Shown: positions 3,405-7,501 of the stretch, in pieces
Numbering within the stretch: the first letter of the stretch is position 1
Layout of the letters: each line of letters opens with the position of its first letter
From: Erythrobacter sp. 34-65-8
GTDB lineage: Bacteria; Pseudomonadota; Alphaproteobacteria; Sphingomonadales; Sphingomonadaceae
Assembly (NCBI GenBank): GCA_002278985.1
Contig: NCJP01000077.1
Span: 1 to 7,501, forward strand
Direction of reading: 5' to 3'
Length of the DNA stretch: 7,501 nt
The notes under the pieces: model-generated
Database searches by the model: none
What the model saw: the letters and a program-made list of their open reading frames with translations, nothing else
Told to the model about the DNA's origin: nothing
Made by a program: the position numbers and the translations under genes

Positions 3405-4702
3405 TGGCGAGCGTGAGCGAACCCGTTCTGTCCGCAGATGTCGCCCGCGAGGTGATCGATCCGCGCAGCTATGCTGCCTGGAGCCCGCTGCTCGACACCT
3501 TCGACCGGCTCCGCGCCGAAACGCCGGTGGCGAAGATCGTGCCCGAGACCGAAGGCCTGTTCGAGCCGTTCTGGCTGGTCACCCGCTACGATGACGTGAT
3601 GCGGATGAGCAAGGACAACGCGACCTTCCTCAACAACCCGCGCCCGGTGGTGTTCAGCCTGAACGCCGCGATCGAGTTCTCCCGGGCGGCCACGGGCAGC
3701 AACATGCTGGTCGATTCGCTGGTGGTGTTCGATGCCCCGGTCCATCCCAAGTACCGCAAGCTGACCCAGGAGTGGTTCATGCCGCGCAACCTGGCGCGGC
3801 TGGAAGCGGAGATCCGCGATCTTGCCCACCGCACGGTTGACCGGCTGCTGGAAAGCGGGCCGGAAGCGGACTTCTGCAAGCTCGTTTCCGCGCCCTATCC
3901 GCTCCACGTGGTGATGCAGATCCTCGGCGTCCCGGAGGAGGACGAGCCGCGCATGCTGATGCTGACCCAGCAGATGTTCGGCGGGCAGGACAAGGACCTG
4001 TCCGGCACCGGGATGGACAACATGACGCCGGAGCAGGTCACCATGCTGGTGGCCGGCGCGGTCAAGAGCTTCGAGGAGTACTTCGCCCAGATCGCCCGCG
4101 ATCGCCGCGCCAACCCGACCGACGATGTCGCCAGCGTGATCGCCAATGCCAAGGTCGACGGCGCACCGCTGCCGGAACGGGACATGGCGGGCTACTACAT
4201 CATCGTCGCCACCGCCGGGCATGACACCACCAGCGCCAGCACCGCCGGGGCCATGCTCGCGCTGGCGCAGGACCCTGGCCAGTGGGCGCGGGTCAAGGCC
4301 GATCGCTCGCTGCTCCCCGGCATTGTCGAGGAAGCGATCCGCTGGACCACCCCGGTGCAGCACTTCATGCGCACTGCGGCGGAGGATACCGAGCTCAGCG
4401 GCCAGCCGATCCGCAAGGGGGACTGGCTGATGATGAACTACGTCGCCGCCAACCATGACCCTGCGCAGTTCGCAGAGCCCCGCAAGTTCGACGCCGCCCG
4501 CAGCCCCAACCGCCACCTGGCGTTCGGGGCGGGGGCGCACCAGTGCCTCGGCCTGCACCTGGCGCGGCTGGAGATGCGGATCCTGTTCGAGGCGCTGCTT
4601 GACCGCCTTGGCACGATCGAGCTGGCGGGTGAGCCAGCGCGCGCCAGCAGCACCTTCGTCGGCGGGCTCAAGACCCTGCCCCTGCGGTTCACCCCAGCGT
4701 GA
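3404..4702 (+). CDS. Cytochrome P450, CYP108-like (P450terp relative)
   Basis: This 432-residue soluble bacterial P450 is predicted to hydroxylate a hydrophobic substrate using O2 and electrons from a ferredoxin/reductase pair. The diagnostic motifs are all present: the C-helix DAPVHPKYRKL at 110-120, the I-helix oxygen-activation motif AGHDTT at 271-276, ExxR at E310-R313, and the heme loop FGAGAHQCLG at 374-383 with axial C381. No N-terminal membrane anchor is seen, as expected for class I enzymes. The C-terminal half (HFMRTA, PNRHLAFG, HLARLEM, FVGG) recalls P450terp (CYP108A1) as I remember it, and CYP108 members occur in Novosphingobium; the subfamily call is from memory, not alignment. 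The start is ATG 3404, which overlaps the previous stop as TGATG and follows TGGAGG (3391-3396) at ideal spacing. The GTG at 3401 would add one residue. No ferredoxin or reductase gene is adjacent, so its redox partners must be encoded elsewhere. Confidence 0.93.
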   Translation: MASVSEPVLSADVAREVIDPRSYAAWSPLLDTFDRLRAETPVAKIVPETEGLFEPFWLVTRYDDVMRMSKDNATFLNNPRPVVFSLNAAIEFSRAATGSNMLVDSLVVFDAPVHPKYRKLTQEWFMPRNLARLEAEIRDLAHRTVDRLLESGPEADFCKLVSAPYPLHVVMQILGVPEEDEPRMLMLTQQMFGGQDKDLSGTGMDNMTPEQVTMLVAGAVKSFEEYFAQIARDRRANPTDDVASVIANAKVDGAPLPERDMAGYYIIVATAGHDTTSASTAGAMLALAQDPGQWARVKADRSLLPGIVEEAIRWTTPVQHFMRTAAEDTELSGQPIRKGDWLMMNYVAANHDPAQFAEPRKFDAARSPNRHLAFGAGAHQCLGLHLARLEMRILFEALLDRLGTIELAGEPARASSTFVGGLKTLPLRFTPA

Positions 4703-5451
4703 GCGGCCCGAGCACGGCCGACCCGCTCGACCTGACCGGCAAGCGCGCGCTGGTGGTCGGCGGCTCCAGCGGCATCGGCAACGGCATTGCGCAGGCGTTC
4801 CGGGCGCGCGGGGCCGAGGTCCGCGTCTGGGGCACCCGCCCCTCTGCCGCCGACTATGCCGACGAGCCGGGCAGTGACATGACCGGTCTTGCTTACGAGC
4901 AGGTCGACGTCTCCGACCCTGCGGCGATCGACGCGGCGCAAGGCATGGACCGGCTCGACGTGCTGGTCACCTGCCAGGGCGCGGTCGAGTATCGCCGGGC
5001 CGAGTTCCAGCGCGAAGGCTGGCACCGGGTGGTGGACGTCAACCTCCATTCGGTGATGGACTGTGCCCGCAAGTTCCAGCCTGCCCTTGGTGCGGCTGGC
5101 GGCGCGCTCATCGTGGTCAGCTCCACCGCCGCCTTCCATGCGACCATCGGCAACCCGGCCTATGCCGCGTCCAAGGCGGCTGCGGTGGCGCTGGTCCGCA
5201 CCCTGGCGGCGGCCTGGGCGGGCGAGGGCATCCGCGTCAACGGCATCGCCCCCGGCTTCGTCGCCACCAAGATGACCAGGGTCACCACCGACCATCCGGA
5301 CCGCATGGCGGGCGCGCTCGCCCGCATCCCCTTGCACCGCATGGGCACGCCGGCGGACATGGCCGGGGCTGCCCTGTTCCTCGCCTCGCCGCTCAGCGCC
5401 TATGTGCTGGGGCAGACGCTGGTGGTCGATGGCGGGCTGACGCTCAACTAG
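4699..5451 (+). CDS. Short-chain dehydrogenase/reductase (SDR, classical type)
   Basis: This 250-residue Rossmann-fold oxidoreductase probably interconverts an alcohol and a ketone with NAD(P). The dinucleotide-binding glycine motif is at 20-27 (VGGSSGIG, with Val replacing the usual leading Thr). N115, the catalytic Ser (S141/S142), Y155 and K159 (YAASK) form the active site, and the IAPGFVAT segment at 183-190 plus the C-terminal LVVDGG are typical. The usual NNAG motif is altered to TCQG at 91-94. The GTG start at 4699 shares four bases with the P450 stop (GTGA). No good ribosome-binding site precedes it, so translation is probably coupled to the P450. A natural role would be oxidising the alcohol made by the P450 or handling a beta-hydroxyacyl intermediate; which one is not decidable here. 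No terminator is visible directly after it. Confidence 0.93.
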   Translation: MSGPSTADPLDLTGKRALVVGGSSGIGNGIAQAFRARGAEVRVWGTRPSAADYADEPGSDMTGLAYEQVDVSDPAAIDAAQGMDRLDVLVTCQGAVEYRRAEFQREGWHRVVDVNLHSVMDCARKFQPALGAAGGALIVVSSTAAFHATIGNPAYAASKAAAVALVRTLAAAWAGEGIRVNGIAPGFVATKMTRVTTDHPDRMAGALARIPLHRMGTPADMAGAALFLASPLSAYVLGQTLVVDGGLTLN

Positions 5452-5697
5452 CCCCGTTTCGCGGCCAGGCCGCCCTGTAGGACCGGCCGGGGGCCAATCT
5501 GCCGCCGCCGCGAGACATGGACCACTTGTTACACAGTCCTGGACCAAAAAAGTCCGCCCGGCGCGCGCGGGGGCCGCAGCGGCATGGACAGGCAAAAAAA
5601 TGGCGGCGCGGTGCGGCATGGGCGCGCGGTGTATCAGGGCGCCAGAGTGTAGGAAATATGGGTCGCAAACATCGCTTGATGGTCTAAAGGATGGGTG
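5452..5697. other. Intergenic boundary between the P450 operon and the restriction-modification gene
   Basis: No convincing gene, RNA or promoter is seen in these 246 bases. A small perfect palindrome, GCGGCC-A-GGCCGC at 5461-5473, lies ten bases after the SDR stop but has no T-tract, so it is at best a weak or Rho-assisted end. TGGACCA occurs twice in direct orientation (5518-5524 and 5540-5546), with GTCC copies at 5536 and 5552 that could pair with it. Two A-runs lie at 5546-5551 and about 5588-5594. An AT-richer patch around 5651-5658 (AGGAAATAT) is the likeliest place for a -10 element, but no matching -35 is clear. Then AAAGGA at 5686-5691 serves the next gene. Confidence 0.45.
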
Positions 5698-7501
5698 ATG
5701 CGGCTAGGCTGGGATGAAATAAAGCGGCGCGCCAAGGCCTTCAGCGAGGAATGGCAGCACGCCCATTACGAAAAGGGCGAAACGCAGACCTTCTACAACG
5801 AGTTTTTCGAAATTTTCGGCATCAGGCGCAAGCAGGTGGCGATCTACGAACAACGGGTAAAGCTGCTTTCCCAAAAGCATGGCTTCATCGATTTGTTTTG
5901 GCCCGGCACCCTGCTGGTCGAACAGAAAAGCAGCAATCTCGATCTGGACCGGGCGCAAGGGCAGGCGCTGGATTACCTTGCGGGCATCCACCCCACGGAC
6001 CAGCCGCAATACGTGCTCACCTGTGATTTCCAGCGCTGGCGGCTGCTCGATCTGGAAACAGGGCGGGAATTGAAGTTCGCCCTGCCAGACCTGCACAAGC
6101 ATGTCACCGCATTCGATTTCATGCTGGGCCGCAAGGTCAGTTTCGAAACCCAAGCGGGCGTTACCATCAAGGCGGCCGAATTGATGGGCAAGCTGCATTA
6201 TGCGCTGGAGGAATCCGGCTATCGCGGCCATGATCTGGAGCAATTGCTGGTCCGCCTGCTGTTCTGTCTGTTTGCGGACGATACGGGCATTTTCCAGCCG
6301 AAGGACATTTTCCTCCAGCTGATCGAAAACGACACACGGCCCGATGGCAGCAATGTGGGCCGCATTCTCAATGATCTGTTTGACGTGCTGGATACGCCGG
6401 AGAATACCCGCCAGACGACGCTGCAAGCCGAATTGAATGCCTTTCCCTACATCAATGGTCAGCTGTTCGCAGGACGGCTCAGAACGCCGCACTTCGATGC
6501 CACCATGCGGAAGCATTTGCTGGACGCGTGCCGCCATGACTGGTCCGGCGTTTCCCCTGCCATTTTCGGCTCGCTGTTCCAGTCTGTCATGGATGCCAAG
6601 CAGCGCCGGGCCAAGGGCGCGCACTACACCACGGAAGCCAATATCCTGAAGGTTATCGGCCCGCTGTTTCTTGATGATCTGAAGGCGGAACTGGCCAGCA
6701 TCACCGCCCGCAAGACAGCGCGGGAGCGGGAGCTCGCGAAGTTTCAGGACAAGCTCACCCGGCTGACATTTTTCGATCCGGCCTGCGGCTGCGGCAATTT
6801 CCTTGTCATTGCCTATCGTGAAATCCGGCGCTTGGAACTGGAATGCCTGAAGGCGCAATATGGCGACCAGCAAATAGACGCGGCGCTGCTGTCGCGCGTC
6901 ACGGTCGATCAGTTCTACGGCATCGAATACGAGGAATTCCCGGCCCGCATTGCCGAGGTGGCCATGTGGATGATGGACCATATCGCCAACAACGAAATCA
7001 ACGAGGCTTTCCGGCTCAATTACGCCCGCATCCCGCTCAAGGATTCCGCCCACATTCTCCATGCCGATGCGTTGGAGACGGACTGGAGCGCGCTTCTACC
7101 GCCGGAGAAATGCGCCTACATCATGGGCAACCCGCCTTTTGTCGGTGCGAAGTTCCAGAGCGAGCTTCAGCGCGCGCAGGTGCGCCGGATTGCGGGGCTG
7201 GGCGGCAGTGGCGGGACGCTCGATTATGTCGCGGCGTGGTTCATCAAGGCGGGGCAATATCTCAATGGATCCTCCCCGAAACGGGGAGGTGGCACGCGCG
7301 CAGCGCGTGACGGAGGGGAGTCCGCGTTACAGGCCTTGCCGATGGGGCAAATCCCCTCCACCATCCTGCGGATGGTCCCCCTCCCCGTGCCGGGGAGGAT
7401 GTGCGCGGAAACCGCCGCATCCGCGTGGCCTTCGTTGCGACCAATTCAATCTGTCAGGGCGAACAGGTGGCGCAGCTTTGGCCGATCCTGTTCGACCGGT
7501 T
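5698..7501 (+). pseudogene. MmeI-like type IIL restriction-modification enzyme, disrupted by a palindromic repeat and 3' partial
   Basis: The intact part encodes a single-chain nuclease/methyltransferase that would methylate and cut DNA at one recognition site. Residues 1-150 fit the MmeI N-terminal nuclease domain, with D65 in GFIDLFWPG and E75-Q-K77 forming a D...ExK motif. A helical linker spans about 150-320. The gamma-class N6-adenine methyltransferase follows with motif I DPACGCGNF at 360-368, YGIE at 407-410 and motif IV NPPF at 478-481. The ATG at 5698 has AAAGGA at 5686-5691, and the frame has a stop at 5677. After YLNG (522-524) the frame runs into a palindromic repeat (7269-7400). 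Family-typical sequence (FVATNSI, QGEQVAQLWPILF) resumes from 7401 in the frame one base back, so a frameshift separates the target-recognition and C-terminal domains. The upstream frame stays open to the window end but translates into non-family sequence. Codon use is less GC-biased than in the operon before it, suggesting transfer. Inactivation is likely; a sequencing indel or recoding cannot be ruled out. Confidence 0.85.
7269..7400. repeat. Multi-hairpin GC-rich palindromic repeat (REP/MITE-like), inserted in the restriction-modification gene
   Basis: The element is bounded by inverted ends ATCCTCCCCG (7269-7278) and CGGGGAGGAT (7391-7400). Each end is itself a perfect hairpin: CCTCCCCG/CGGGGAGG with loop AAA at 7271-7289, and the same 8-bp stem with loop TGC at 7380-7398. 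Inside are CACGCGC/GCGCGTG (7293-7309), ACCATCC/GGATGGT (7360-7376) and a longer-range GGAGGGGA/TCCCCTCC pair (7312-7319 with 7352-7359). It encodes no transposase and would depend on an enzyme elsewhere if mobile. Very similar GC-rich dispersed palindromes are common, to my knowledge, between genes in sphingomonads and other alphaproteobacteria. Exact ends and any target-site duplication are uncertain; a net insertion of 131 bases (7270-7400) explains the reading-frame change simply. Confidence 0.85.

What the first reader, a model, noticed from the sequence alone, without database searches (positions are those of the whole stretch)
7258..7450. A palindromic repeat has landed inside an MmeI-like restriction-modification gene and shifts its frame
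The conserved protein reads through LDYVAAWFIKAGQYLNG up to 7269. The next conserved family segment (FVATNSI, then QGEQV) starts after 7400 but in the frame one base back. The DNA between is exactly a multi-hairpin element with inverted ends. Such repeats normally sit between genes, so finding one in a coding core, between methyltransferase motif IV and the target-recognition domain, is unusual. In a single-chain enzyme, losing this part should silence cutting and methylation together, so inactivation would not leave a lethal unpaired nuclease.
Basis: partly seen in the sequence, partly recalled or inferred. Interest (0 to 1): 0.75.

Follow-up and report, generated by a model that had tools for sequence, protein, structure and literature searches.

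The report
Nuclease-linked palindromes that invade protein loops
A hairpin-rich repeat splits a restriction-modification gene into two reading frames here, and its relatives sit in frame inside the same loops of this enzyme and of essential proteins in many related bacteria, probably as shortened copies of a larger element whose nuclease gene would drive its spread.

Summary
In detail: a 132-base multi-hairpin element (7269-7400) lies between motif IV and the target-recognition domain of an MmeI-family gene, whose halves are in different frames as assembled. The reading "intergenic repeat kills a gene" is too small. At exactly this loop 21 of 151 MmeI-family proteins carry inserts of 16-60 residues, none elsewhere; 18 of the 21 look palindromic, of several unrelated families, with at least 18 gain or loss changes on a tree. 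At DNA level 8 of 9 scorable palindromic alleles keep frame; the window is the exception. Copies of the window's own family are in frame in ValS, MurB, UvrC, GlyS and TrmD; 39 of 120 ValS proteins carry inserts at one loop. The window's genome also holds a longer form, whose two halves flank a DUF559 (Vsr-like) nuclease in one open frame. In nine genomes 22 of 32 DUF559 genes have such palindromes on both sides (0 of 300 control places). So the short repeats are likely MITE-like derivatives of a nuclease-coding element. That the nuclease moves them, and whether the window allele is off or misassembled, is untested.

The parts
5695..7269 (+). Upstream half of the MmeI-family (type IIL) restriction-modification gene: nuclease domain, helical spacer, most of the methyltransferase domain, ending ...AWFIKAGQYLNG
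   Evidence: Pfam MmeI_N, MmeI_hel, MmeI_Mtase; PADLOC REase_MTase_IIG 655 bits
6775..6801 (+). Methyltransferase motif I, DPACGCGNF
   Evidence: read from the sequence; motif form as given in PMC4833311 passages
7129..7140 (+). Methyltransferase motif IV, NPPF
   Evidence: read from the sequence; motif as in PMC4833311 passages
7269..7400 (+). Short palindromic element (multi-hairpin) in the methyltransferase domain; it maps between T527 and N528 of MmeI (PDB 5hr4), counted by hand from the alignment of the empty homologue P0104
7271..7323 (+). Left half of the element, 81% identical to the left end of the DUF559-carrying element in the same genome (G000:C91)
7346..7398 (+). Right half of the element, 94% identical to the right end of the DUF559-carrying element in the same genome (G000:C91)
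7401..7501 (+). Start of the downstream half (VRGNRRIRVAFVATNSICQGEQV...), in another frame than the upstream half; continues to 8672 on the contig with the target-recognition and C-terminal domains

Best explanation
The insert is a short copy of a palindromic repeat that in Sphingomonadales genomes also sits in frame inside conserved proteins, with this loop of MmeI-family enzymes occupied in relatives by several unrelated repeat families, and it is likely an internally shortened form of a larger element whose DUF559 nuclease is predicted to help it move. Shown: the window's genome holds a 442-base version in which the two halves of this element flank a DUF559 gene, all in one open frame (PPRDGEG...DUF559...PLHQPAAGPPPRAGE), and 22 of 32 DUF559 genes in nine genomes have palindrome families seen as protein inserts on both sides. 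Inferred: short copies, which no longer code for the nuclease, spread in trans like MITEs; those landing in frame in a surface loop are tolerated as an unstructured linker peptide, others in genes are mostly lost. In the window the copy leaves the two halves of the gene in different frames, so this allele would make a protein without target-recognition domain and be off for both cutting and methylation, unless the frame is an assembly error.
For: Same-site recurrence: 21 of 151 MmeI-family proteins have an insert of at least 16 residues, at residues 522-526 of P0104, none elsewhere by the same measure; by eye 18 of the 21 are of palindromic repeat type (and P0106). Tree: at least 18 changes for 28 palindrome rows and 119 empty rows; 22 for all inserts among 206 rows. 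Near-identical empty neighbours over the upstream region: P0024 (insert) against P0104 (empty) 98.7%, window against P0017 (empty) 94.6%. Frame kept at DNA level in 8 of 9 scorable palindromic alleles, binomial P about 0.001 against 1/3 (by hand). Inserts are repeats of their hosts: 17 matches in G050 for the L033 family, 14 in G437 for the L015 family. Own-family copies in frame in ValS, MurB, UvrC, GlyS, TrmD. Empty and occupied valS and murB loops compared. ValS: 39 of 120 proteins with a loop longer than 14 residues at one place, several families by eye. DUF559 link: own-genome full element; ValS protein P0235 with a DUF559 domain inside the loop insert; both flanks match an insert family in 22 of 32 DUF559 genes (this includes one orthologous pair, L224 and L229) against 0 of 300 control places; flank inverted repeat above all 600 controls in 18 of 32. 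Insert modelled as coil at pLDDT about 26 between a helix and a strand.
Against: No movement has been seen and no target-site duplication was found; in the G001 valS and murB loops residues of the empty loop are gone. 10 of 32 DUF559 genes lack matching palindromes on both sides, 14 of 32 do not exceed the best control in the inverted-repeat test, and the L015, L020 and G018-valS insert families were not among the two best hits of any DUF559 flank shown, so the nuclease link covers only some families. Many copies of the window's family look intergenic. The nuclease model PF18741 scores under its curated cut-off (30.7 against 38.2 bits). The tree changes cannot tell gain from loss. The structure model is poor overall (pTM 0.38). 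The scaffold gap beside the element leaves the window's frame open to doubt.
Confidence: 0.66

Rival explanations
1. Ordinary inactivation: an intergenic-type repeat landed by chance in this gene and broke it, and nothing more general is behind it.
For: The two halves are out of frame as assembled; the gene is a strain-specific islet absent from a same-species complete genome, so its loss would be tolerated.
Against: The same loop is occupied in 21 of 151 homologues and no other place has an insert of that size; 8 of 9 scorable palindromic alleles keep frame; the downstream half has no stop over 423 codons.
Confidence: 0.12
2. Assembly or sequence error: the element is real and in this loop, but the frame break comes from a miscalled repeat next to a scaffold gap, and the enzyme is really made with an in-frame linker.
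For: A run of N lies about 100 bases downstream; the genome is a 422-contig, 70% complete assembly; most sister alleles are in frame; the downstream half shows no stop.
Against: No reads are available to show an error; out-of-frame alleles, with tandem tracts rather than palindromes, do exist at this loop in other genomes (L018, L046, L139, L140).
Confidence: 0.35
3. Same-site recurrence is tolerance only: elements land anywhere and this loop is merely the one place where 30-60 extra residues do no harm.
For: The loop varies in length in distant relatives (10 of 44 have 1-5 extra residues after residue 526 of P0104) and the insert is modelled as unstructured; several unrelated families share the site.
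Against: Another place, after residue 389, is longer than in P0104 in 44 of 44 distant homologues, by 2 to 13 residues, yet carries no insert of 16 residues or more in 151 close ones.
Confidence: 0.45
4. The repeats are REP-type elements moved by a RAYT (Y1) transposase.
For: Palindromic, short and interspersed like REPs; Y1_Tnp genes in 2 of 7 genomes.
Against: 5 of 7 genomes searched had no Y1_Tnp match; the gene in G001 is bounded by its own AATTCCGGGGACAC repeats, with one partial window-family match nearby; the one in G098 has no clear insert-family match around it.
Confidence: 0.1
5. The break is read through or the enzyme is made in two pieces, by frameshifting or by restart at the GTG at 7401 behind the element's GGGGAGGA.
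For: A GTG in the downstream frame directly follows the element's GGGGAGG.
Confidence: 0.04

Closest known systems
Rickettsia palindromic elements (RPEs), also reported in Wolbachia and Methanocaldococcus jannaschii (PMC10969869 and PMC2996958, passages read)
   Same: Short palindromic repeats in frame inside unrelated housekeeping proteins, in unstructured stretches, with a conserved peptide reading
   Different: Sphingomonadales, several of them cultured; several unrelated families share one loop; a nuclease-coding full-length form is seen here, none was mentioned for RPEs in the passages read
[quoted passage not shown]
   Same: A nuclease-coding insert without known splicing in a DNA methylase gene, readable in frame with the host protein
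   Different: Different nuclease (DUF559, Vsr-like), here in the same frame as the element peptide, palindromic ends, and many short nuclease-less copies across bacterial chromosomes
MITEs and REP/BIME elements
   Same: Short, palindromic, interspersed, apparently non-autonomous
   Different: No target duplication or general transposase partner found; coding-frame retention; the candidate parent encodes a DUF559 nuclease
MmeI (type IIL), PDB 5hr4, PMC4833311 (passages read)
   Same: Domain order and motifs; the empty homologue P0104 aligns to it without a gap around the insertion place
   Different: No insert between T527 and N528
DUF559 / Vsr-like VsrA of Caulobacter (PMC12907096, passages read)
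   Different: There a stand-alone repair-type gene; the word palindromic does not occur in that text

Membership tests
MmeI family, type IIL restriction-modification | N-terminal nuclease, helical spacer and gamma-class methyltransferase domains | tested here: met
   Pfam MmeI_N, MmeI_hel, MmeI_Mtase above cut-off
MmeI family, type IIL restriction-modification | Target-recognition and C-terminal domains in the same chain | tested here: inconclusive
   MmeI_TRD and MmeI_C are present downstream but in another frame and beyond the window
MmeI family, type IIL restriction-modification | Cuts and methylates a specific site | not testable with these tools
   no activity or methylation data
Rickettsia palindromic elements | In-frame insertion of a palindrome in unrelated protein genes | tested here: met
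   ValS, MurB, UvrC, GlyS, TrmD for the window's family; the window's own copy is not in frame
Rickettsia palindromic elements | Sequence membership in one of the RPE families | not tested
   no RPE sequence set was at hand; not filed as RPE
REP elements with RAYT partner | A RAYT (Y1_Tnp) gene bounded by the same repeat | tested here: not met
   2 of 7 genomes with Y1_Tnp; the G001 gene is bounded by different repeats, the G098 gene has no clear insert-family match around it
Homing endonuclease element | Nuclease gene inside the inserted element | tested here: met
   met for the long form: G000:C91 and ValS P0235, 22 of 32 DUF559 genes flanked; the window's short copy itself lacks the nuclease
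Homing endonuclease element | Nuclease cuts the empty allele and copies the element there | not testable with these tools
   needs biochemistry; many different places per genome argue against strict homing
Phase-variation tract | Simple sequence repeat whose copy number sets the frame | tested here: not met
   no direct repeat family in 7000-7501; four other homologues do hold such tracts at this loop

The most novel reading that the evidence does not exclude
A class of mobile elements made of one palindrome-ended DUF559 nuclease gene invades the loops of essential proteins and is translated as part of them without splicing; its short, nuclease-less copies are the protein-coding palindromes. 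Different families converge on the same loops because the nucleases cut conserved coding DNA there, and type IIL restriction enzymes are a favourite, switchable target. Rickettsia palindromic elements could be an ancient branch of the same kind.
Probability: 0.35. Interest if true: 0.93.

Novelty: new variant of a known kind. Interest (0 to 1): 0.84.

Why it matters
Protein-coding palindromes are known mainly from Rickettsiales (passages), without an engine named there. Here they are common in Sphingomonadales, several of them cultured, occupy the same loops of ValS and MmeI-family enzymes from unrelated families, and come with a candidate engine, a Vsr-like DUF559 nuclease between the palindrome halves. 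That makes two open questions testable: how protein-invading repeats spread, and how proteins acquire new disordered linkers. It also gives many DUF559 genes a likely biological setting, and warns annotators that inserts in ValS, UvrC or MurB of these bacteria are repeat-derived peptides.

Tried and rejected
Rfam: no family at gathering score in the window. RAYT as mover: rejected as general answer. Two-piece or frameshifted translation: no test found, kept as a weak rival. Duplicated target sites: none seen when empty and occupied valS and murB loops were compared. LigA (L158, name recalled) as a further invaded gene: dropped because an N gap lies in the element copy. L190 (ImuB-like by recall; DUF6504) and L162 (Smr domain): the frame is open across the element, but the Pfam match lies on one side only, so they are not counted. 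L189, an MmeI-family gene of G001, has MmeI_Mtase on one side and MmeI_TRD on the other of its insert and is mentioned as a likely case. Literature: searches (palindromes in proteins, sphingomonads; DUF559) showed, in the listings returned, no report of these elements in Sphingomonadales or of DUF559 with palindromic ends. Those listings were capped (for example 15 of 193 papers, 12 of 2,911); one search listed all 14 papers that hold the word DUF559, of which one was read in passages. The library holds open-licence papers only, and an RPE paper cited there, PMC186582, was not held. Searches served MmeI and phase variation.

Rows dropped before counts: P0094 (no motif match) from the trees; L018, P0100, P0059 and P0035 from the palindrome count on the 151-row tree (tandem tract or unknown insert; L046 was not in that set); L028 from the frame count (contig ends at the insert); one partial DUF559 hit (L239) from the flank tests, which used 32 of 33 hits. 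The ValS search and the first MmeI search were made with insert-bearing queries, so their insert fractions are enriched; the second MmeI search used the empty P0017, and each search listed only its best 120.

Full report
What is in the window. The gene from 5695 is an MmeI-family (type IIL) restriction-modification gene: Pfam MmeI_N, MmeI_hel and MmeI_Mtase match its first 525 codons. The contig continues to 10,491 bases; the downstream half is open from 7311 to 8672 in another frame and carries the end of MmeI_Mtase, MmeI_TRD and MmeI_C. Between the halves lies the element at 7269-7400, with 35-nt inverted arms and a fold far stronger than shuffles (z -6.69). A run of N at 7502-7533 of the contig is a warning about the local assembly. 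The same-species complete genome G098 has the two sides of the gene (contig 4620-5568 and 8821-10491) at 97% identity with 536 bases in place of the gene, so the gene is a strain-specific islet.

The loop is a recurrent site. Of 80 relatives fetched from one genome per species (114 were found, the best 80 kept), several carry other sequences at the same place, after QYLNG or a similar pair and before NRRIR. At DNA level the palindromic alleles L015, L020, L023, L029, L032, L033, L034 and L044 keep the frame and have no stop in it; the window does not; L028 ends inside the insert. Eight of nine against an expectation of one third gives P about 0.001 (by hand). Among 151 proteins, the listed best of two searches, 21 have an insert of at least 16 residues, all at residues 522-526 of P0104, and none elsewhere. 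By eye 18 of the 21 are repeat-type; the others are a tandem tract (P0100) and two of unknown kind (P0059, P0035). By eye the inserts in proteins and loci together are of at least five families: SPLPLAGG...PPASGRG, HPELVSGSI...WMLKQVQHDE, SPLAGEG...PLPQGERG, VTPGSTRGP (L020), and the window's PPRNGE...PPPRSGE. On the trees insert and empty alleles are mixed: 22 changes for all inserts among 206 rows, 18 for 28 palindrome and 119 empty rows. P0024 with insert is 98.7% identical over the upstream region to P0104 without. Changes cannot tell gain from loss. In MmeI itself the place is between T527 and N528 (counted), inside the methyltransferase domain given as 301-620 in PMC4833311 (passages). 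A model of the insert-bearing P0001 shows coil of pLDDT about 26 between a helix and a strand; the model as a whole is weak (pTM 0.38).

The inserts are genome repeats, and they invade other genes. The L033 insert has 17 matches in its own genome and the L015 insert 14; matches are pieces on either strand, so places are fewer. Seven inserts or copies besides the window fold with z from -2.9 to -9.0. The window's family has 12 matches in G098 and 42 in G001. Of 39 distinct places scored with a codon model, some at contig edges, in-frame crossing was checked with curated profiles: UvrC (one stretch 55-692 of a 695-codon frame in L003; the same layout stands in G098 and G001), ValS, GlyS and MurB, TrmD. 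Many other places look intergenic. Comparison with empty alleles shows the loop GWP...KHYPN of ValS occupied in G001 by the window's family and in G018 by an unrelated one, and empty in G000, G098, G003, G005 and G007; the murB loop is occupied in G001 and empty in the five others compared. In the two G001 loops some residues of the empty form are gone, and no target duplication was seen. In 120 ValS proteins closest to the G001 protein, 39 have a loop longer than 14 residues there, 78 have 7 or 8 residues, and 3 were not parsed. The query bore an insert, so the fraction is enriched.

The nuclease. One ValS, P0235 (1110 residues), has a DUF559 domain inside the loop insert, between stretches that by eye are halves of the window's family. 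The same layout is in the window's own genome at G000:C91, 4626-5067, and in G098: left half 81% and right half 94% identical to the window's halves in G000, DUF559 between. The frame that reads PPRDGEG at the left end runs through DUF559 to PLHQPAAGPPPRAGEAH and a stop, 149 residues. The element peptide in this reading is therefore the two ends of a nuclease reading frame, which would explain why that frame is often free of stops in short copies. DUF559 was found in 9 of 9 genomes searched, 33 hits: the window's own genome, six others of its species, genus or family, and the hosts of L023 and L015. In 22 of 32 both 130-nt flanks match an insert family, covering the window, L033/L029, L023 and L034 types; none of 300 control places in the same loci does. 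The inverted repeat between the flanks exceeds all 600 control pairs in 18 of 32. Against: ten of 32 do not fit the first test and 14 the second, and the L015, L020 and G018-valS families did not appear among the best two hits shown. [quoted passage not shown]

How it most likely works. Shown: palindromes with and without the nuclease gene, their in-frame presence in conserved proteins, recurrence at one loop of MmeI-family enzymes and one of ValS. Inferred: the short forms are deletion derivatives spread in trans; the nuclease makes the break through which element DNA is copied; selection keeps in-frame copies in loops. The choice of loop may be tolerance, targeting or both. Tolerance alone is strained by the place after residue 389, which is longer by 2 to 13 residues in 44 of 44 distant homologues yet free of inserts of 16 residues or more in 151 close ones. 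The window allele is predicted to be off, or wrongly assembled; its downstream 423 codons without stop, 93% identical to P0012, suggest that any loss is recent.

Known relatives. Protein-coding palindromes are described for Rickettsia, Wolbachia and M. jannaschii (PMC10969869, PMC2996958, passages), and an in-frame insert with a hidden HNH nuclease and no known splicing for phage methylases (PMC11855218, abstract and passages). Neither describes a palindrome-ended DUF559 element or same-loop convergence of unrelated families in the parts read. The capped listings named in Tried and rejected showed no report of it.

Noticed in passing
L018:5608-5664, L046:5613-5641, L139 and L140 at the same loop: The same loop holds simple repeats in other genomes: (GATCAGC)x8, (TCGG)x7 and poly-G runs of 10 and 8, these four out of frame at DNA level, while P0100 carries the ISDQRSA tract in frame. 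This looks like phase variation of type IIL enzymes.
   Followed up: partly
window 5569-7501 and contig to 8820: The gene is an islet between a short-chain dehydrogenase and galU (names by recall from the sequence); the same-species genome G098 has 536 bases there, and G001 has another MmeI-family gene beside galU with a palindrome in an open frame.
   Followed up: partly
ValS proteins P0152-P0271, after IKPVF (residue 689 of P0227): A second ValS stretch is also occupied by several palindrome families (13 and 9 rows of at least 16 residues at two neighbouring alignment places).
   Followed up: no
L151 (G098 glyS): Two different palindromic elements lie in frame in one glycyl-tRNA synthetase beta gene, PSPLQGRGLGEG... 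and ILPETGRGTSEAGGG....
   Followed up: no
L202:1114-2160 (G001): A RAYT-type Y1 transposase gene bounded by its own AATTCCGGGGACAC repeats, with one partial copy of the window's element in the same open frame.
   Followed up: no
L009:8677-8815: Another repeat of the CCCTCTCCC type lies just behind the restriction-modification gene; it is 80% identical in G001.
   Followed up: no
P0006 C-terminus: The MmeI-family protein P0006 has GEGGAPSPLMGEG at its end, apparently read into a palindrome behind the gene.
   Followed up: no
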